Origin: Natronosalvus rutilus
GTDB taxonomy: Archaea; Halobacteriota; Halobacteria; Halobacteriales; Natrialbaceae
Length of the DNA: 64,000 nt
NCBI RefSeq assembly: GCF_024204665.1
Contig: NZ_CP100355.1
Span: forward strand, 2,771,451 to 2,835,450
Direction: 5' to 3'
Within the stretch, counting starts at the first letter, position 1; every line of letters begins with the position of its first letter. A program made the translations under genes and the position numbers. Under the pieces are notes generated by a model, which was given only the letters and a program-made list of their open reading frames with translations, was not told the origin of the DNA and made no database searches. Shown one piece after another: positions 4,634 through 32,658 of this stretch.

Positions 4634-7600
4634 ATGACAACCAAAGACTCGAAAGCGACGCATAAACGCTGGCTGCCGTCACGCCACCAATTTCAGGCGA
4701 TCGTCTTCAGCGTGCTCCTGATACTGTCGCTCCCGGCAATGGCAGGAGCGGGCGTAATGGCTGCCGAAACTGACGATGGCAGCACTGGCAGTGGTGACGG
4801 TTCCACCGAGAACACGACTGTCAGACACTATGACGATTTCGAAGACGGGGATTATGAGGGGTGGACCCCTGTGAGAAATCCCGACGCTGTCTCAGTTGTC
4901 GATGAGGGATTTTACGGTGGAAAATCTCTACGTTTGGATGATTCTGGCGGGTCAGGAGAACAGGGAGATATCTTGTTCGACAGTGGTCCTCTTCTCAAAC
5001 TCTCTGATGACTTCGAGATTCAGGGGACTTCAAGATTCGAGGATAATTCCACACAACGGTCTCGGATAGGTGTTCGAACGGAGGACCTTGAGGATAGGCT
5101 CCTCCTCACCTTTAGTAAGCAATACGACAGTGTCTCTCTAACAACTGATTGGGGTGAAAACCCAGAGGACCACGGCGAATATATCGAGGGTGCCCATCAC
5201 GATATGTGGGTTGACTGGAGGATTCAGGTAGATTCTGGAACTGCCCGGGCAAAAGTATGGGAATCTGGAACGAAGGAGCCTGAGAAATGGCAGATGGTTC
5301 GCGACTTCAACAATTTTGAAGGGTATTTCTACGCCAATGCTGGCAACGGAGATTATGGAAGAGAGGTCTTGATCGACCATGTGGACTTAGGAGGTCATAC
5401 CATTTCTGGTCAAGTCCTGAACCGGCACGGTGACCCGGTTTCGAATGCGACCGTCGAAGCCTACGGTGTCAACTTTGATGGCCTCGAGAATCAGGCCGAC
5501 GATCTCGAAGCAGAAGCGGATCGACTCCTCGATGAAGCCGAGAACATGGTCCCGAACGACTGGGACTCTGACCTCCAGATGCTTGGATCTGGCGGCCTCG
5601 TCGACGAAGCCCAGGCTTCTGAATGGAACTATATCGCGGTCCACGAACGCGAAGACTGGGACCTGAACGCCGAACACAATTGGAAAACAAAGTTGGCGTG
5701 GGGCGACGGAGCGGAGATCGACCCCGATCTCGGAGCGCCGTCGGTCCAAACCAACGAGCGGAATCTCGTCCTCTCGATCTGGGATCCGACCGACGTAGGG
5801 GGAACAGTTACCGATCGCGAGGACGCCATAGACAGAGAGCTCCCCGGACGGACAACCTCTGGAACGGTCGTCATAGAGCAAATATCCCCATCCGGAGAAG
5901 CCGTCGACAAAACCAAACGCGAGACCGAGGTCATCGCCGAGGACGTCAACCCGACATACTCGCTTGCAAAGAAAGATCACGAGGCTGTCCGGGTATCGTT
6001 GCCGAGAAACCACTTCTACCGCGTCTATCCAGAGGGACAGCCCGAAAGTTCGTACGTGTTCGCAATCGGCGACCCGGACGACTTTGTGAGCGCCATTCAG
6101 TCAGATCTTCGTGATGAAGCCAATCGACTCACTGACTGGTCCGAAGAGATCCAGAGCACTATCGAAAGTGGTTCCCTCACACGGACGACGACTACTACTG
6201 ACGAAAACGGCTACTACGAGCTCAACGTCCAGCGACCGGTACAAAAGGCTGCGGTCCAGGCCTACAAAGGCGATCCGGAACTGTTGCAGGGCGAACTGGG
6301 TGCCTCTGTCAGCCAGTTGCGGGGTCTTCGTGACATGGGGTATAACGGTTCGATTGGGATGACTCTCGCCCCGACGCGGACGGACGTCCCAGCGAACAAT
6401 GTCACGCTCGAGATGCACGAGCTCGATACGATGCCGTTCGACGGTATCGACGATTTCGAAGAGTTGATGAACCAGCTTACCGAGGAGTTCCTAAATTCAT
6501 CCGTCTACCAGGACCGATGGGACGAGATTATCGAAGAGATCGAAGGCGAACGACTGAGCGAGCTCTACGAGAATTACTACAACCTCGTCGATGGAAACGA
6601 GGAACTCAGGGACCGAGTCGAGGAACTTCTCGGGCGAGAGTTACACGATCCCGATGATGATCCCTCCGTCGCTGAAATGCAGGCCGAGCTCGAGGCCATC
6701 CGGCAGGCACTCGCCGAGCAGGCAACTGGAGATATCGGTATTGGCGACGGCGACTACGAATTCGGCGATGATGGCCTCACGGCGACGTGGCAGGTCCCAT
6801 CGTGGGTGGGCGAAGACGACGTCGCGGTGAATCTGCTGACGAACGGCACGACCGAACCCATCCCAGACGAGTACATTAGCGTCGAACCGACGGGTGGCTT
6901 CGCTGGGACGAACACGGTCACCGTTAGCAACTACCCGATAGATGACGGGGTTACGCTGGCCGATCTCGAACTGGTAATCGCTGGTGAGCACGGCGTCGGC
7001 GATGGTATCATTTCAATCGCAAATCCCGAGTGGGATGGCACCGCCCCGAAGATCGATGCGGTGGACTTCACCGACCTCTCACCCGGCCCCGACGAAACGG
7101 TTGGCGTCTCTCTCGACGCCACTGAAAACTACGACTCGCTCGTCGATGCGACGGTATTCGGACCCGATGGGAACGAGCTCGAGTCGTCGTTGAGCACGAG
7201 TGGTGAGGATCGACTGACGTTCAAGACTTCGGGAGCTGGCGACTATCACGTCCGACTGTATATAGAGTCCACTTCGGGAGACATCTTCCAGATCACAGAA
7301 CGTGTGCGTGCGGGCGAGCAATCACGGAGCGATCGAGCGACTGTCCGTATCGGCCAGTCCAGACTCGGCTATCACGCGACGATCGGCGACCATCTCGAGA
7401 GCGCCCGTGTTGACGTAGATGGATCGAAAATCGGCATCGACGTGATCGCCCCATCGGACGAGATCCCAGGCGAGATCCACCTCATGCCCGACGCTGGCGT
7501 GACGACCAACGACGTCACCTTCGACGTGTCCGTACTCGAGGGGGCGTCTGAAAGCCGAATCAACGGCAACGTGGCGGTGTTGATGCACTTCGAGAGCGGC

Positions 7601-7909
7601 TACGACGATGACACGCTCGCGTGGCGGAATGGGCGCGCGCTTCCGGCCGATGGGAACACCTTCGGAGAAGTCCTCGTGCGAGAGGAGAAACACATTCTCG
7701 TCAGCTACACCGCGAGTAACGGAGAAGTCTACCTTCGAACGGACATGGACCCCGGGTGGGGAGATCGAGCCTGGCACAAGGCCGATCAATATATCCCGAG
7801 GCCGTCGCTCCCGTTCTTCTCGACGATCCTCGTCATCTTCGAGTCCTTCGAGGCCGATGTCGAACGCCTCGGAACCGTGACCACGACAACCGTGCCGGCA
7901 ACGGGGTAA
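4634..7909 (+). CDS. Large secreted multidomain protein (1091 aa), candidate surface or receptor-binding component
   Basis: A cleavable signal peptide spans roughly residues 1-43. Residues about 58-250 form a beta-rich domain beginning HYDDFEDGDYEGWTP, reminiscent of LamG/concanavalin-like lectin folds. A carboxypeptidase-regulatory-like strand (TISGQVLNRHGDPVSNATVEAYG, about 255-277) is split from its matching second half (TDENGYYELNVQRP, about 520) by a long insertion. An acidic helical stretch near 600-700 and several Ig-like domains follow. There is no C-terminal membrane helix or anchor motif. Base composition changes sharply inside the gene: about 4820-5400 is much richer in A/T third positions than the rest. 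It may be a fibre- or spike-like protein, by inference only. Confidence 0.7.
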   Translation: MTTKDSKATHKRWLPSRHQFQAIVFSVLLILSLPAMAGAGVMAAETDDGSTGSGDGSTENTTVRHYDDFEDGDYEGWTPVRNPDAVSVVDEGFYGGKSLRLDDSGGSGEQGDILFDSGPLLKLSDDFEIQGTSRFEDNSTQRSRIGVRTEDLEDRLLLTFSKQYDSVSLTTDWGENPEDHGEYIEGAHHDMWVDWRIQVDSGTARAKVWESGTKEPEKWQMVRDFNNFEGYFYANAGNGDYGREVLIDHVDLGGHTISGQVLNRHGDPVSNATVEAYGVNFDGLENQADDLEAEADRLLDEAENMVPNDWDSDLQMLGSGGLVDEAQASEWNYIAVHEREDWDLNAEHNWKTKLAWGDGAEIDPDLGAPSVQTNERNLVLSIWDPTDVGGTVTDREDAIDRELPGRTTSGTVVIEQISPSGEAVDKTKRETEVIAEDVNPTYSLAKKDHEAVRVSLPRNHFYRVYPEGQPESSYVFAIGDPDDFVSAIQSDLRDEANRLTDWSEEIQSTIESGSLTRTTTTTDENGYYELNVQRPVQKAAVQAYKGDPELLQGELGASVSQLRGLRDMGYNGSIGMTLAPTRTDVPANNVTLEMHELDTMPFDGIDDFEELMNQLTEEFLNSSVYQDRWDEIIEEIEGERLSELYENYYNLVDGNEELRDRVEELLGRELHDPDDDPSVAEMQAELEAIRQALAEQATGDIGIGDGDYEFGDDGLTATWQVPSWVGEDDVAVNLLTNGTTEPIPDEYISVEPTGGFAGTNTVTVSNYPIDDGVTLADLELVIAGEHGVGDGIISIANPEWDGTAPKIDAVDFTDLSPGPDETVGVSLDATENYDSLVDATVFGPDGNELESSLSTSGEDRLTFKTSGAGDYHVRLYIESTSGDIFQITERVRAGEQSRSDRATVRIGQSRLGYHATIGDHLESARVDVDGSKIGIDVIAPSDEIPGEIHLMPDAGVTTNDVTFDVSVLEGASESRINGNVAVLMHFESGYDDDTLAWRNGRALPADGNTFGEVLVREEKHILVSYTASNGEVYLRTDMDPGWGDRAWHKADQYIPRPSLPFFSTILVIFESFEADVERLGTVTTTTVPATG

Positions 7910-26808: not shown

Positions 26809-29013
26809 CTACCTCTGACGCCCGAATCTTTCTGCCTCTCCTGCAAACATGACGTCTCTCAAAATGCGTTCGACGAGGTCGTCATGGGAGAGGTCATCGT
26901 AATCATCGTACCGCTCTCGCAATTGGGCCTCCTGCCCTGCAGTAAAGTAGAGATCTAGTTTCTCGTCGGCCTCTGCGGCCGGTACAGAATCGGCTGCCGT
27001 ACTTATTGCTGCCGACTCACTCGTAACCTCCGACTCCGACTCGGTACCAGAAACCACGTCGTCAGACGAGACGTCGCCCTCCGTCTCTCGAGACGACCCT
27101 TCCTCGGCGGTTTCCCTAGCCTGCTCTCTATCGTCCTGAGAGTCCGAAGAGTCCGACCCGGGCAGGTATTGGTCAACCTCTTCTCGGGATTCAACGACGG
27201 TGAGGTCGTCAATATCAATCCCGTACGTCGATTTGAGAGCAGCCACATAGGTTGGCCATTTCCACGCCGTCATAGCGCTCTCTGCAAGGCGAATCTCGTG
27301 CCGGGCATGGGCCTCGGCCTCCTCCGAGATGTCCTCGATCACCTCTTCGACTTTCGTCTCGAGGTCATCAACGTCGTCGAATTCGAATTCGTCTTCGGGA
27401 CCCGTATCGACCAGTGTGAGGCGCTGTTTCTGGTCGCTCTTATAGTTCTCCTCGAAGTGACGTTCGAGTTGACCTTTGAACGATTCATCGACACAGTCGT
27501 ACTCATCGGTATAGAGCCACTCGCTACGTTTTTCTTCGGGATCCCAGTCGTCGGGGGGCGTCCAGAGGTCTAGTCGCTCTGTTTCCGCTATGGTTCGGTC
27601 CTCAGTGGGTGGCGTATGGACACCGAGGTACGCGGGTTGTTTGCTTTCGTGGAACGCCGCGGGGTGAGCAATTCCCAACTTAGCGTGGATCGCGACGTGG
27701 TTTTTGAACTCGGCTGTTTCTGGATACTCCCAATTCCGACTGGTCGAGGGGCTTCGCCCGGGTTTGTGATCACTATCGATGCGCTGGCGACCGCGATAGT
27801 TGTAAACCTTCCATTCCCCTTTGTTATCCGCGTAGGGACTGTTCTGGGGATATGGCTTGAGGATGGGAATGGGTACTTTCCCAGTTTTCGCGTCGAAGTA
27901 TGCCCGTGTCGCGTTCTTGATCTTCCGGTAGGCTTCCCTTGCCATCTCGTCGTCCGGATTGATTCCGGTCTTTGACGTGTTGAACGGGAGGTCCTCTGCA
28001 CTTTCCGTGGACCACATGTCGGCACGGATGACGAGTCGTTTGTCACCCGTGGCGGGGTTAAACTGGTTCAGCCCGCCCCTGACACCAAATCCAGCTTCCT
28101 CGTCAGTACGGTTTGAGAGTATTTTCCGACCGTTTGCATACAACGTAACGCCGGACTCGTCCGAATCGGCTTTTGTTTTCAGCCCGACCCGGACGTCCAT
28201 CATTACGTCGCCTTCGTAATCCCCGGTCGAAGGCCGGAGAAGAAGTTTCGGGTAACACCGCGGATAGAGGCCGTCGAACGGGGACCAGCTCAGTGAAAGG
28301 TCACTTTCGGCGGTAAGCGGATCACCGTTGATGGAGATGTTTACCTGAACGTCACGGGACTCAGGGAGGTCGTCGGAAATATATAGGTCGTACGTGTCCG
28401 CGAGATATTCGTCAAGCGGCTTTTCGACATCATCGGAGACATCATCGGCACCCATTTCCCGCCCCCAGGCGAATTTCAGATCCTTGATCTCGATGACGGT
28501 AGTGCCCTTGGATTCAGAGAGATCTTCGTGGGCCTCGAGGTCGGTGATTTTGGATACGGAGTATTCACGCTTCTCCTCATCGTGAAGCCACTCGTCGATA
28601 TCGATGGTGAGTTCGGATCCAGCGTCAGCCAGCTCGAAGCGTGTATATACCGTAAGTTTGTGTCCAAGCGCGACTGATGCGCGTTTGAGGCCGATGCCTG
28701 CCCAGCCGATGGAATCGTAGTGGTCTTCACTTTGGACACTATCACCGAGGCTGAAAATCGCTTCCAGGTCTTTGGGTGGTATCCCGCCACCGTCATCGAG
28801 GATTCGGAGAGTGTTGGTGGTTTCGTCGTACTCGATATCGATGTTGATCTGGTCTCGGAACCCGTAGCGCTCTTGTGCGTCGATTGCGTTGTCAACGAGT
28901 TCACAGATTGCCCCACGAGTAGAGATTTCTTTGGCTAAGTTGGCCCATACCGCCTTGTTTGCCCCGAATGTGACCTTTTCCGGAATTTTATGTAGGTTGG
29001 CGTCGTTAGTCAT
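26809..29013 (-). CDS. GHKL (HSP90/MutL/MORC-like) ATPase, 734 aa
   Basis: The Bergerat ATP-binding fold is clear: N-box ELVDNAIDA (Glu38, Asn42), G1 box DDGGGI (about 73-78) and G2 box GIGLKRAS (about 106-113). The arrangement is closest to MORC/HSP90-type proteins rather than histidine kinases. A middle beta-rich transducer region, acidic helices and a ~70-residue acidic linker follow, ending in a small helical domain (FTAGQEAQLRERYDDYDDLS). MORC-type ATPases in prokaryotes often pair with nucleases in defence or DNA-management systems. Here a possible nuclease is divergently encoded across an operator-like repeat. Confidence 0.85.
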   Translation of the reverse strand: MTNDANLHKIPEKVTFGANKAVWANLAKEISTRGAICELVDNAIDAQERYGFRDQINIDIEYDETTNTLRILDDGGGIPPKDLEAIFSLGDSVQSEDHYDSIGWAGIGLKRASVALGHKLTVYTRFELADAGSELTIDIDEWLHDEEKREYSVSKITDLEAHEDLSESKGTTVIEIKDLKFAWGREMGADDVSDDVEKPLDEYLADTYDLYISDDLPESRDVQVNISINGDPLTAESDLSLSWSPFDGLYPRCYPKLLLRPSTGDYEGDVMMDVRVGLKTKADSDESGVTLYANGRKILSNRTDEEAGFGVRGGLNQFNPATGDKRLVIRADMWSTESAEDLPFNTSKTGINPDDEMAREAYRKIKNATRAYFDAKTGKVPIPILKPYPQNSPYADNKGEWKVYNYRGRQRIDSDHKPGRSPSTSRNWEYPETAEFKNHVAIHAKLGIAHPAAFHESKQPAYLGVHTPPTEDRTIAETERLDLWTPPDDWDPEEKRSEWLYTDEYDCVDESFKGQLERHFEENYKSDQKQRLTLVDTGPEDEFEFDDVDDLETKVEEVIEDISEEAEAHARHEIRLAESAMTAWKWPTYVAALKSTYGIDIDDLTVVESREEVDQYLPGSDSSDSQDDREQARETAEEGSSRETEGDVSSDDVVSGTESESEVTSESAAISTAADSVPAAEADEKLDLYFTAGQEAQLRERYDDYDDLSHDDLVERILRDVMFAGEAERFGRQR

Positions 29014-29079
29014 AATACCCCTGAGCGTCTCTTAGTGTGGACCCTCACAATAACTATTTAGTGATACAACTTACTTAAA

Positions 29080-29099
29080 CCTTAGCCAGATGGCTAAGG
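29080..29099. promoter_or_regulatory. Inverted-repeat operator between divergent ATPase and nuclease-like genes
   Basis: CCTTAGCC and GGCTAAGG form a perfect 8-bp inverted repeat around AGAT. Related half-sites occur at 29183-29189 (CTTAGGC) and 29211-29217 (GGCTAAG), flanking a TATA-like TTTATATA (29195-29202) about 30 bases before the ATG at 29231. A dimeric repressor bound here could control both directions. Confidence 0.55.
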
Positions 29100-29230
29100 C
29101 ATGCTACCAACTATCATAGATAGGCCATCTGCACAATCTGTGCTAATCAGTAGCACGCGACATGGGTGGTTCAGGGCCGGATCTTAGGCTAGCGTTTATA
29201 TATTCATCATGGCTAAGAATTGCGTGCTAG

Positions 29231-29770
29231 ATGAGTTCGAAAGGTACCAACGGTCACCCTAAAACGTCCCTTAGTGGCGTGGGGGCGATCTACAACGCCG
29301 CCAGGGGGCGGTACACCACCGAAACCTCCTGCCTCCACCGACTGTGGCGCCAACGCTTCCCCGGTGCCCGTATGGAAACCGAGGCGATGCTCGGCACCAA
29401 AATGGTTGGGCGCAACCCCGCACACTGGACGCGCGGGTGTGGCGCACGCCACGTGGATCTCATGTCCCCTGTTTGGTCGGCGAATCCGCCGTATCGCATC
29501 GTTGAAGCGAAACGTTTCGTGACGCCGGGCAACCTCGACGCGGCTGTCGGGTCGCTCGTTCTCGAACGAGCGCTCCTCGAGGCCGAGTCCAACGTCGCGC
29601 CGCATGAAATCCACCCCGTGGCGGCCTTCGACGGCGCGGCGTTCGACCCTTACGGTGACATCCCCGAGACGATGCGGGTCATGGTCCAGTGCATCGACGA
29701 ACTTGGCATCACCCTCGAACTCGCCACCGGTAACGGGTTCGTTTCCTTGAACGAGGTGGTCGTACGGTGA
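29231..29770 (+). CDS. Putative PD-(D/E)XK nuclease-like protein, 179 aa
   Basis: The segment RHVDLMSPVW...YRIVEAKRF (about residues 75-97) has the D...(E)xK spacing of the PD-(D/E)XK nuclease core: Asp at the end of one strand and Glu-Ala-Lys at the end of the next. An N-terminal helix-rich part precedes it. The gene is probably leaderless, because a TATA-like box lies about 30 bases upstream. Its stop overlaps the GTG of the next gene. The nuclease call is motif-based and uncertain. Confidence 0.5.
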   Translation: MSSKGTNGHPKTSLSGVGAIYNAARGRYTTETSCLHRLWRQRFPGARMETEAMLGTKMVGRNPAHWTRGCGARHVDLMSPVWSANPPYRIVEAKRFVTPGNLDAAVGSLVLERALLEAESNVAPHEIHPVAAFDGAAFDPYGDIPETMRVMVQCIDELGITLELATGNGFVSLNEVVVR

Positions 29771-30138
29771 CTACCGTAGACCTCGGTGTCCTACTCCGCG
29801 AAGCTGACGACATGGGCGTCTCCACCGTTGTTGCAGAACGAACTGAACTTGCCCACGGCGAACTGGCGCTCATCATCTACGGTGATGACGAGGCGAAGAA
29901 TCTGCTGTCCTACCAACTCGCCGCCGTCGACTCCGTTCGTGTCCTTGGCCACCAGTACCGCCTCACGGCGAACGCTATCTCCGCATCACTTCGGACAGCG
30001 GATTCAGCAGAGGATGACCTGCTCCTCCTCGACGACGAGCGGAACCCCGCAAGCGGCGTCCTAGCGCTCGCCCAGCACGCCGCCGTACAGGAGGCACAAG
30101 CCGGGTACGGGGAGGTGACGGCTATCCATGGCGAGTGA
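29767..30138 (+). CDS. Hypothetical protein, 123 aa
   Basis: It starts with a GTG overlapping the previous stop (GTGA) and ends inside the start of the TFB gene (11-base overlap). The protein is mixed alpha/beta, with helix LGVLLREADDMG and strand ELALIIYGDDEA, and lacks cysteines or signals. The tight coupling suggests it works with the nuclease-like protein or TFB. Confidence 0.6.
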   Translation: MTTVDLGVLLREADDMGVSTVVAERTELAHGELALIIYGDDEAKNLLSYQLAAVDSVRVLGHQYRLTANAISASLRTADSAEDDLLLLDDERNPASGVLALAQHAAVQEAQAGYGEVTAIHGE

Positions 30139-31105
30139 TCCACGGGACGACTCTGCTACGACGGATCCTGGTCTAGCGGCCCCTGGCAACGCCTGTCCGA
30201 ACTGTGAGCCTGGAATACTCGAAAGCGGGCGCAGTGAGACGTACTGCGACAACTGCGGGTACACGGTCAACACCACGAACATCGACCCCGGCCCAGAGTG
30301 GCGCGCATTTGACGACGACAGCGAGGACCCATCGAGGGTGGGGGCGCCGTCGACACCTACACTTCACGACAAAGGCCTTTCCACTACTATCGGTCACTCG
30401 ACCGACGACCAGCAACTCGGTGGGGATCAAAATGGTGACCGCCGCCAGCGGAAGTTGAACCGCATCAGTCAGACGCGCAACAGCCGAGAACGTACCCTCA
30501 GGGAACTACTATCGGAAAATAAGCGCATGTGCGACGCCCTCGAGTACGGGAAAAACGTCGAGGAGACGGCTAGTGTCATCATCCGGAAGGCAGTTGATGA
30601 GGAACTCCATCTAGGCCGCTCGATAGAGGCAGTCGCATCAGCAGCTGTCTACGCGGCTGCACGTATCGATAGCCGTCCGTGCGCGTGGGAAGACATCGTC
30701 ATCATCTCGCGCCTGGAGGACGAGGGTCGGATAGTACGCACATACAAGGCGTTGAACCGCGAACTTGCCCTCGAAGTCGAGCCCCCCAGCTACCGCACCC
30801 ACGTTAACCCTGTCGCCGAGAAACTGAACACTGCGATCAACCTCGCTGGTGACGAGGAAGATGACAATATTGATGAGGAACCTGGGAAGGTAACGCGTGA
30901 GGATCGCCTGGCCGCACAACAACTTGTAGAGAAAGCACAACAGACAGGGGCCGCGTCCGGAAAAGATCCTCGCTGTCTCGCGGCAGCAGCGATCTACGTA
31001 GTTCTTGAAGACGAGTTCACCCAACGGGAGTTCACCGAGTACGCGGCTATCTCACGACCGACACTCCAGAAACACGCCGCTGAACTACGCGACCTACAGG
31101 ATTGA
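30128..31105 (+). CDS. Transcription initiation factor TFB, element-encoded
   Basis: An N-terminal zinc ribbon has CPNC (23-26) and CDNC (40-43). Two cyclin-like repeats follow (about 110-205 and 215-325), with typical helices such as EETASVIIRKAVDEELHLGRSIEAVASAAVYAAAR and the second-repeat CLAAAAIYVVLEDE. TFB recruits RNA polymerase to TATA/BRE promoters. At 325 residues the length is normal. Haloarchaea carry several TFBs; this one is translationally coupled to two element genes and likely redirects transcription to element promoters. Confidence 0.9.
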   Translation: MASDPRDDSATTDPGLAAPGNACPNCEPGILESGRSETYCDNCGYTVNTTNIDPGPEWRAFDDDSEDPSRVGAPSTPTLHDKGLSTTIGHSTDDQQLGGDQNGDRRQRKLNRISQTRNSRERTLRELLSENKRMCDALEYGKNVEETASVIIRKAVDEELHLGRSIEAVASAAVYAAARIDSRPCAWEDIVIISRLEDEGRIVRTYKALNRELALEVEPPSYRTHVNPVAEKLNTAINLAGDEEDDNIDEEPGKVTREDRLAAQQLVEKAQQTGAASGKDPRCLAAAAIYVVLEDEFTQREFTEYAAISRPTLQKHAAELRDLQD

Positions 31106-31274: not shown

Positions 31275-32393
31275 TCATTCGTCGTCGAACACCTCGCTCA
31301 CGTCTTCACCCAGCTCACTTGCTTCGATATGAGAATACATCTGCGAGGTCGTCTTCGGATCGGCGTGGCGGAGCATCCGTTGAGCGGTCGCGGCGTCGCG
31401 CTCGCGAAAGAGCGTTTCGCCGACGCCTCGACGAGCGCCGTGTAGCGTGAGATAGTCGCCGTCCTCGAGGTCGGGGATGTCTGCCTCCTCGGAGAACCGT
31501 TTCAACAGTGTGCGTACGCCCGATGTCGAGAGCGACGGCGGTTCGATGCCGGTCTCGAGGACATACTCCCACGGATTGCCCTCCGGTTTCTCGTGTCCGG
31601 CGTCATCGATCGCCCCGTACAGCGACGGAGGATGCCGAGAAGGGAAGACCGGCCACCCGTCGGCCGGCGGGTCGACGATCTGGTACAGCCGCTCGAGAGG
31701 CGCGACCGCCTTCGACGTGAGTGGCGTCTCTTCGCGTTGCTGGTTCTTCCCCAGGACGGTGATCGTCCCGTCCTCGAGGTCGACGCTGTGCCATCGGAGG
31801 CCGTTACGCCGGACGTCGTTCCGGTCGGCGAGGATCTCGGCGCCGCGTACGCCCGAGTACGCGAGGACGGTGACGAGCGCCCGGTCACGAACTTCCTCGA
31901 TAGCGTCCGATCCTTTCTCGTCGATCGCTTCCCGAGCTCGTTCGTCGACGTAGTTCACGATCGCCCGGCGCTGCTCGACGCTCCAGAACTGTTGATCGCC
32001 GCTGTTCGAGGACGGACGCGGCGGCATGTCGTCTTTCGCGACCTGTTTCTCCGCCGGGTTCTCCGCGAGGTAGTCATATTTGACTGCCCAGGAGAGGAAC
32101 GCCGACACCTGGTTGTAGTAGGTCCACGCCGTCGAGGCGGCGATTCCGCCGTCGACGTCCTCCGACTGGCCCGCTTCGACGCGCCGATCGAGATGGGCGG
32201 CGTAGTTCCCCATCGTGCGTTTGCTCACGCCCTCGAGCGTGTCGACGCCACGATCGTCACACCAACTGATCCACTTCTCGAGCACGCGGTCGAGATTCTT
32301 CGCGTAGTTCCCCGACTGGCGCTCGAGGAACTCTGCCTTCGCGTCTTCGAGCCGTTTTCCCTGGGGTGCAGGCCCTGAATTGCTGGTTTCCAT
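31275..32393 (-). CDS. Tyrosine recombinase / integrase (XerC/D family), 372 aa
   Basis: Catalytic residues are visible: Arg183 (YSGVRGAE), a beta-hairpin Lys near 216, His318 and Arg321 (LHGARRG), His343 (LRHADPKT) and nucleophile Tyr353 (MYSHIE). An N-terminal SAM-like core-binding domain covers about 15-115. The length is normal for a complete, probably active enzyme. Its 3' end faces the 31.1 kb junction between modules, as expected if an attachment site lies there. It probably integrates and excises the element. Confidence 0.92.
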   Translation of the reverse strand: METSNSGPAPQGKRLEDAKAEFLERQSGNYAKNLDRVLEKWISWCDDRGVDTLEGVSKRTMGNYAAHLDRRVEAGQSEDVDGGIAASTAWTYYNQVSAFLSWAVKYDYLAENPAEKQVAKDDMPPRPSSNSGDQQFWSVEQRRAIVNYVDERAREAIDEKGSDAIEEVRDRALVTVLAYSGVRGAEILADRNDVRRNGLRWHSVDLEDGTITVLGKNQQREETPLTSKAVAPLERLYQIVDPPADGWPVFPSRHPPSLYGAIDDAGHEKPEGNPWEYVLETGIEPPSLSTSGVRTLLKRFSEEADIPDLEDGDYLTLHGARRGVGETLFRERDAATAQRMLRHADPKTTSQMYSHIEASELGEDVSEVFDDE

Positions 32394-32658
32394 CGAGTCA
32401 GCTTCATAGACAGCGGCGACCCTAGTAAATCCACCGCAGACTATTGGTCTAATGTGCTGTGTGCTGTTGTCGTTTGTCGGACTGTGGTTTCAGGCTTTGA
32501 GAGTCTCGAAATCGTGAGATTAGCGGGTTTTGCAGGGACCAGTATATCGTATGTCGCCATATGTTTTGGTTGACTCCATCCCTAGATACGAAACGGCAAG
32601 AAACCAACGTCTGACGCTTGTTAGCTCACGGATAGGAAACGGAGGGGTTTGAGGATTG

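What the first reader, a model, noticed from the sequence alone, without database searches (positions are those of the whole stretch)
26809..31105. GHKL ATPase, putative nuclease, small protein and TFB around one operator
A MORC-like ATPase faces a PD-(D/E)XK-like gene coupled to a small protein and a TFB, with a perfect 8-bp inverted repeat between. ATPase-nuclease pairs are typical of defence or DNA-surveillance systems; coupling to a general transcription factor is unusual and might link sensing to transcription switching.
Basis: partly seen in the sequence, partly recalled or inferred. Interest (0 to 1): 0.7.

Follow-up and report, generated by a model that had tools for sequence, protein, structure and literature searches.

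The report
Plasmid-borne GHKL–nuclease cassette with own TFB
An integrated plasmid-like element in a salt-loving archaeon carries a small, probably defensive gene set (a DNA-clamping type ATPase, a likely nuclease, a small protein) together with its own unusual copy of a general transcription factor, which may serve as the set's private switch.

Summary
The genes and operator are real. A MORC-like GHKL ATPase (26809-29013, -) faces an overlapping operon: a 179-aa ORFan with PD-(D/E)XK-like traits, a 123-aa ORFan and an accessory TFB. The inverted repeat has 9-bp arms (29080-29099); its octamer occurs four times in 64 kb, all within 286 bp. The cassette sits beside the tyrosine integrase of an element related to Natrialbaceae plasmids; two of six relatives carry recognised defence genes in that slot. 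GHKL relatives occur in 25 of 392 order genomes (own included), often among methylases, GmrSD, Dpd and Pycsar genes. The full four-gene set was found nowhere else. GHKL with a divergently adjacent TFB recurs in 3 of 25 other loci, two also with a UvrD–PD-(D/E)XK protein; these three are one clade, and the frequency alone is not significant. These TFBs are very divergent and altered in the helix expected to read the promoter. Best reading: a mobile-element restriction-like defence cassette whose TFB locally controls the divergent promoters, like an R-M controller protein. Defence context is fairly well supported, the nuclease fold weakly; TFB control is inferred. A new variant of a known kind.

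The parts
26809..29013 (-). MORC-like GHKL ATPase, 734 aa (P0001)
   Evidence: ATP-site residues E38, N42, D73, G106, G108 and K348 invariant over 12 sequences
29231..29770 (+). 179-aa ORFan, candidate PD-(D/E)XK nuclease (D76, E92-A-K94), P0002
   Evidence: weak structural support; no homologue
29767..30138 (+). 123-aa ORFan of unknown function (P0003), GTG start overlaps the stop of P0002
   Evidence: low-confidence model, no fold match
30128..31105 (+). divergent accessory TFB, 325 aa (P0004): zinc ribbon and B-reader kept, C-terminal recognition helix altered
29080..29099 (.). operator: 9-bp inverted repeat CCTTAGCCA-GA-TGGCTAAGG; its left arm abuts the TATA-like box of the GHKL promoter
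28932..28939 (+). extra copy of operator octamer TGGCTAAG, inside the 5' end of the GHKL gene
29210..29217 (+). extra copy of operator octamer TGGCTAAG, between TATA box and start codon of P0002
29072..29087 (-). putative GHKL promoter GGCTAAGG-TTTAAGTA (BRE position + TATA-like box)
   Evidence: inference from sequence
29187..29202 (+). putative P0002 operon promoter GGCTAGCG-TTTATATA
   Evidence: inference from sequence
31275..32393 (-). tyrosine integrase of the host element, next to the cassette
   Evidence: Phage_integrase 1.2e-13; 30-55% identical to integrases of 4 of 6 related plasmids

Best explanation
The four genes are accessory cargo of an integrated haloarchaeal plasmid-like element: a restriction-like anti-invader cassette. 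Shown: the anatomy, the cargo position, the GHKL family's company of defence genes, the repeated operator and the TFB's divergence. Inferred: the GHKL protein dimerises on ATP and clamps or loops invading DNA; the 179-aa protein (helped by the 123-aa one) cuts it; the TFB works mainly on its own locus, recruiting RNA polymerase to the two divergent promoters through an altered BRE, while the palindrome and octamer copies give feedback (activation at low and occlusion at high occupancy). This would delay and cap nuclease expression after entry into a new host, as controller proteins do in bacterial R-M systems.
For: GHKL domain and MORC hits, intact ATP-site residues. Slot between the distal backbone and the integrase: collinear backbone in 6 of 6 plasmids examined; 2 of 6 carry recognised defence genes there, pHTUR05 (KAP ATPase + Mrr_cat nuclease) and N. 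daqingense (type IIG-like R-M). Neighbours of GHKL relatives: 306 PADLOC families hit by 102 proteins, against 85 by 118 matched control proteins; Pfam shows MethyltransfD12 7, GmrSD 4, UvrD 3, PDDEXK_1 3, BrxC/D 3, TGT 2, PycTM 2 of 102. TFB divergently adjacent to GHKL in 3 of 25 loci, two with UvrD-PD-(D/E)XK after the TFB. Those TFBs and P0004 have end branches of 6.9-10 against a median of 0.053, and altered C-terminal helices. Octamer clustering.
Against: P0002 and P0003 have no homologues, and the nuclease model is low confidence. No methylase lies in the cassette. TFB near GHKL is not significantly enriched: 4 of 25 loci against 1 of 20 controls, and three of the four are one GHKL clade, to which the window protein does not belong. 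The match between the two window promoters is ordinary by an unanchored test (12/17). GHKL proteins near defence genes may also do DNA repair.
Confidence: 0.5

Rival explanations
1. The TFB is the element's own general initiation factor (like a phage sigma factor), transcribing element genes at large; the GHKL and nuclease-like genes merely share its neighbourhood.
For: Haloarchaeal tailed viruses carry TFBs (PMC10544981, one passage read). The TFB lies on a mobile element with an integrase.
Against: The composite GGCTA..G-TTTA is found only at the two cassette promoters in 64 kb (the pattern was drawn from those two). No TFB in the examined stretches of the 6 related plasmids, so the backbone does not seem to need one. 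Its gene overlaps P0003, which overlaps P0002.
Confidence: 0.25
2. A repair or element-maintenance module: the GHKL clamp and a resolvase-like nuclease help the element's replication, integration or resolution, not defence.
For: Next to the integrase. The weak P0002 structural matches lead with XisH, named for control of fdxN element excision, and include the Hef nuclease.
Against: Related elements with the same backbone and integrases lack GHKL/TFB in the examined stretches, and 2 of 6 hold recognised R-M or ATPase-nuclease genes there. GHKL relatives sit beside methylases, GmrSD, Dpd and Pycsar genes.
Confidence: 0.17
3. Chance juxtaposition in a cargo hotspot: independent passengers with no joint function.
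For: No four-gene co-occurrence elsewhere. TFB proximity to GHKL is not significant by count.
Against: Overlapping genes, clustered operator copies at both promoters, and a GHKL-TFB divergent pair kept in a second GHKL clade across three families at 40-47% GHKL identity.
Confidence: 0.08

Closest known systems
MORC/paraMORC-type GHKL proteins of prokaryotic restriction-modification systems (Iyer et al. 2008, PMC2292703)
   Same: GHKL + S5 type ATPase with intact motifs; relatives lie beside methylases, endonucleases and helicases
   Different: The cassette has no methylase or helicase, and a TFB lies in the partner operon
Haloarchaeal GHKL-TFB-UvrD/PD-(D/E)XK genes near Dpd (7-deazaguanine) genes, loci L059, L060, L062
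   Same: GHKL divergent from a hyper-divergent TFB; a PD-(D/E)XK nuclease is encoded after the TFB in L059 and L062
   Different: There the nuclease is a 1055-1073 aa helicase-nuclease; DpdA/DpdC or TGT genes lie nearby in L059 and L060; the GHKL belongs to another clade
MZA anti-phage system (MzaB ATPase)
   Same: Best NCBIfam match of the GHKL protein (8.4e-8)
   Different: 31 bits against a cut-off of 850; no other MZA partner seen in the cassette
Controller (C) proteins of type II R-M systems
   Same: A regulator encoded with the nuclease, and palindromic operators at the promoters (functional analogy)
   Different: C proteins are small HTH proteins (recalled); here it is a TFB paralogue, i.e. 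a general initiation factor
Sulfolobus TFB3 (non-canonical TFB paralogue; PMC7289017, passage read)
   Same: A TFB paralogue used for regulation rather than housekeeping
   Different: TFB3 acts in trans with canonical TFB; P0004 keeps zinc ribbon, B-reader and both cyclin repeats

Membership tests
GHKL ATPase superfamily | HATPase_c fold with N-box, G1 and G2 motifs | tested here: met
   PF13589 4.5e-18 and PF02518 9.3e-9, both above cut-off; E38, N42, D45, D73, G76, G77, G103, G106, G108 and K348 invariant over 12 sequences
MORC family proper | S5-domain motif GhXhhpXXRhl (PMC2292703, passage read) | tested here: inconclusive
   P0001 residues 288-298 read GVTLYANGRKI: G288 and R296 invariant over 12, but K297 and A293 do not fit h and p strictly
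MZA system | MzaB above its curated cut-off | tested here: not met
   31 bits against 850
PD-(D/E)XK nuclease superfamily (P0002) | Significant profile match to a member family | tested here: not met
   No family match in Pfam, PADLOC or PHROGs and only a chance NCBIfam row; P0002 has no homologues to extend the search
PD-(D/E)XK nuclease superfamily (P0002) | Core fold with D...ExK active site | tested here: inconclusive
   D76 and E92-A-K94 present; model pLDDT 49; Foldseek best XisH E 0.37; VIA Z 4.8 XisH, 4.3 Card1, 3.9 Hef nuclease, mixed with unrelated folds at similar Z
TFB/TFIIB | Zinc ribbon plus two cyclin repeats | tested here: met
   PF08271 2.6e-8 and PF00382 6.4e-18 with 2 stretches
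TFB/TFIIB | Active in initiation (recruits RNAP at BRE/TATA) | not testable with these tools
   B-reader GPEWRAF and B-linker HDKGLST kept in the alignment; activity needs in vitro transcription
Restriction-modification system | Cognate methyltransferase or other modification gene | tested here: not met
   None among the four genes; no methylase hit in the 10 further window proteins scanned; other window genes were not all scanned
Defence system (any) | Reduces virus or plasmid entry | not testable with these tools
   Only genomic context available

The most novel reading that the evidence does not exclude
An archaeal counterpart of the R-M controller protein made from a general transcription factor: a defence cassette that brings its own TFB with a changed BRE-reading helix, so that its GHKL ATPase and nuclease are transcribed only from private promoters which host TFBs read poorly. 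The same solution would have been reached in two GHKL lineages (this cassette; the L059/L060/L062 clade).
Probability: 0.28. Interest if true: 0.78.

Novelty: new variant of a known kind. Interest (0 to 1): 0.5.

Why it matters
Haloarchaea carry many TFB paralogues, and what the divergent ones do is largely open. If some are private initiation factors of mobile defence cassettes, that explains part of the TFB expansion and shows how an archaeal system can delay and limit a toxic nuclease after transfer without a bacterial-type repressor. It also gives a defined, testable pair: the P0004 recognition helix and the 217-bp divergent region.

Tried and rejected
Homologues of P0002: one scan each of genome and viral contigs, phages and plasmids, 392 order genomes. 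The residual hits (E 5e-4 to 0.01) include frames with stops and low-quality alignments and were rejected. P0003 likewise. Foldseek for P0003 and the viral library for P0002 gave nothing significant.

P0004 orthologues: the best of 125 family genomes reach 183 bits against 721 for itself. No special sister group was found; in the tree P0004 is a long branch whose place is unsure.

Idea that the two divergent window promoters share one BRE-TATA element: GGCTA..G-TTTA occurs only at these two sites in 64 kb, but the pattern was taken from them, and in an unanchored comparison the window pair scores 12 of 17, matched or beaten by 23 of 46 divergent pairs. In L060 the two promoters match 14 of 17, reached by 4 of 46 pairs including itself; L059 (11) and L062 (12) do not. 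Kept as a hint only.

TFB as standard partner of the UvrD-PD-(D/E)XK protein: of 6 such loci in 263 genomes only L059 (G165) has a TFB and two (L059, L185) a GHKL. Rejected as a general rule. Statistical enrichment of TFB near GHKL: not significant.

A second genome-contig scan with the GHKL alignment gave only 3 loci. Viral contigs and phages gave no GHKL relative.

Dropped rows: the 207-aa GHKL fragment of L034 was left out of the tree (rows over 400 aa only). The neighbour comparison used 20 of 25 GHKL loci (those with a matched control stretch) and only genes of 120 aa or more with pI under 5.8, which drops L062's TFB.
Full report
OBSERVATION. The window lies on the chromosome-sized contig of a haloarchaeal genome (G000:C1:2771451-2835450, genome 4.31 Mb). 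A same-genus contig of 47,551 bases (G297:C3) has the length of plasmid NZ_CP099999.1 of Natronosalvus halobius, and scripts on both gave the same gene matches, so the genus is probably Natronosalvus (inference). The GHKL gene (26809-29013, -) is divergent from three overlapping genes: 29231-29770, 29767-30138 and 30128-31105 (+). The gap of 217 bp holds CCTTAGCCA-GA-TGGCTAAGG at 29080-29099. Octamer TGGCTAAG occurs four times in 64 kb on both strands: 28932, 29081 (reverse), 29091 and 29210. Only three 8-mers of the window have four non-overlapping copies within 300 bp, and this is the only one with no copy elsewhere. Two of the four copies are the palindrome itself, so the independent surprise is the other two.

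THE GHKL PROTEIN. HATPase_c_3 4.5e-18; nearest solved relatives MORC2 and MORC4 (2.2e-5 to 9e-4). ATP-site residues are invariant over 12 sequences. The published MORC S5 motif GhXhhpXXRhl (PMC2292703, passages read) is nearly met at residues 288-298. Matches at E <= 1e-10 lie in 25 of 392 order genomes, own included, giving 25 loci besides the window. In a tree of 26 rows the window protein is a lone long branch.

DEFENCE COMPANY OF THE FAMILY. Neighbours (120 aa or more, pI under 5.8, within 4 kb) of the GHKL gene in 20 of the 25 loci (102 proteins) hit 306 PADLOC families at E <= 1e-6; 118 proteins around 20 control points on the same contigs hit 85. These are counts of families, not of proteins. 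Pfam on the 102: MethyltransfD12 7, GmrSD_N 4, UvrD 3, PDDEXK_1 3, BrxC_BrxD 3, TGT 2, PycTM 2. L059 contains DpdA (6.2e-75) and DpdC (3.1e-8) homologues.

THE CARGO SLOT. The protein at 4634-7909 has relatives on 18 plasmids. Six plasmids were examined and all have a collinear backbone (4.6-16.7 kb of the window). At the far end of the backbone, next to the tyrosine integrase, each has variable genes. In pHTUR05 these are a winged-helix protein, an Mrr_cat nuclease (1.9e-30) and a KAP ATPase (4.2e-30). In the N. daqingense plasmid it is one 1204-aa type IIG-like R-M protein (Eco57I 5.7e-34 with HSDR_N and TaqI_C). The other four showed no recognised defence gene in what was scanned or annotated there (two proteins without a family; the rest judged by annotation). 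The integrase of the window is 30-55% identical to those of 4 of the 6. No TFB or GHKL protein was found in the stretches held of the 6. The window cassette thus sits where relatives keep an ATPase-nuclease pair or an R-M enzyme. In the genus (8 genomes, own included), window 20.1-31.2 kb has no substantial match outside the own copy.

P0002 AND P0003. Both are ORFans. P0002 has D76 and E92-A-K94. Its single-sequence model (pLDDT 49, pTM 0.46) has strand 91-97 carrying EAK, then helix, strand, helix, strand, strand, an order compatible with PD-(D/E)XK proteins. Foldseek ranks XisH first at E 0.37, with PaqCI also high. VIA gives XisH 4.8, Card1 4.3 and Hef 3.9, but KCC-1, a glycosyltransferase and Rab GTPases score alike. 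I call it a plausible, unproven nuclease. P0003 has no fold match.

THE TFB. P0004 is one of six TFB matches in its genome (E <= 1e-40) and about 41-47% identical to the listed best TFBs of the family; no orthologue. Zinc ribbon, B-reader and linker are kept. The end of the second cyclin repeat reads SRPTLQKHAAEL where ordinary TFBs read SEVTIRNRYxEL. The second cyclin repeat contacts the BRE (PMC7289017, passages read). TFBs next to GHKL genes in L059, L060 and L062 (424, 445 and 215 bp away, divergent) are likewise extreme: branches of 10, window TFB 6.9, L046 (4.2 kb away) 8.9, median 0.053. The tree warns of long-branch joins, so I claim divergence, not common descent. In L059 and L062 the TFB is followed on the same strand by a UvrD helicase with a C-terminal PD-(D/E)XK domain. 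By count alone TFB proximity is not significant: 4 of 25 GHKL loci against 1 of 20 controls (my judgement, no formal test was run).

CIS ELEMENTS. The left arm of the palindrome abuts a TATA-like box of the GHKL promoter (GGCTAAGG-TTTAAGTA); the P0002 promoter reads GGCTAGCG-TTTATATA. A BRE preference for G at -6 and A at -3 has been reported (cited in PMC11065993, passages read); the P0002 promoter has C and G there. That paper also describes inverted repeats overlapping the BRE in archaeal viruses as likely repressor sites. The likeness of the two promoters is not significant in an unanchored test. L059 has a 27-bp direct repeat in its GHKL-TFB gap, and L062 an 8-bp inverted repeat, so repeated elements between the genes recur, with different sequences.

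MECHANISM. Inferred: the ATP-driven GHKL clamp holds or loops DNA (as proposed for MORC/paraMORC proteins in PMC2292703), P0002 cuts, P0003 assists. The TFB, made with the nuclease, drives the two promoters and is limited by operator occupancy. How self-DNA is spared is unknown: no methylase was seen.

PRIOR REPORTS. Searches of the held library for TFB or transcription initiation factor IIB with defence, GHKL or restriction-modification listed no paper that, from its title and abstract start or the passages read, describes a TFB tied to a GHKL defence locus. Subscription papers are not held. Controller-protein papers were seen as listings only.

Noticed in passing
window about 4634-39236: Integrated relative of a family of Natrialbaceae plasmids (pHALXA03, pHTUR05 and others) with a large secreted-type protein, an S8 peptidase, membrane proteins and a tyrosine integrase; exact ends not determined.
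   Followed up: partly
L059:121-13857, L060, L035, L064: Haloarchaeal Dpd-like (7-deazaguanine DNA) gene sets lie beside GHKL ATPases; a UvrD helicase-PD-(D/E)XK protein accompanies them in L059 and L035.
   Followed up: partly
L046:5911-7159, L034:14222-15492, L061:143-1488: A cyclase-like gene and a small membrane-protein gene sit next to GHKL genes; two of the 102 neighbour proteins scanned match the Pycsar effector family.
   Followed up: partly
L059:9326-9453: About five tandem copies of a 27-bp unit between the divergent GHKL and TFB genes; the shared 9-mer GAGTTAGAG also lies near the GHKL start.
   Followed up: no
L034:9577-13052: The GHKL gene is split in two by an oppositely oriented 388-aa ORF, probably an insertion.
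   Followed up: no
L184:7992-11083 (NZ_CP119991.1): In Halobaculum marinum the UvrD helicase and PD-(D/E)XK parts are annotated as two genes, beside queC, folE, queE and a TGT gene.
   Followed up: no
window 31275-32647: The integrase region is 86-88% identical in DNA to copies on secondary contigs of the same genome (G000:C3) and of G237 (C2), so this integrase moves among replicons.
   Followed up: no
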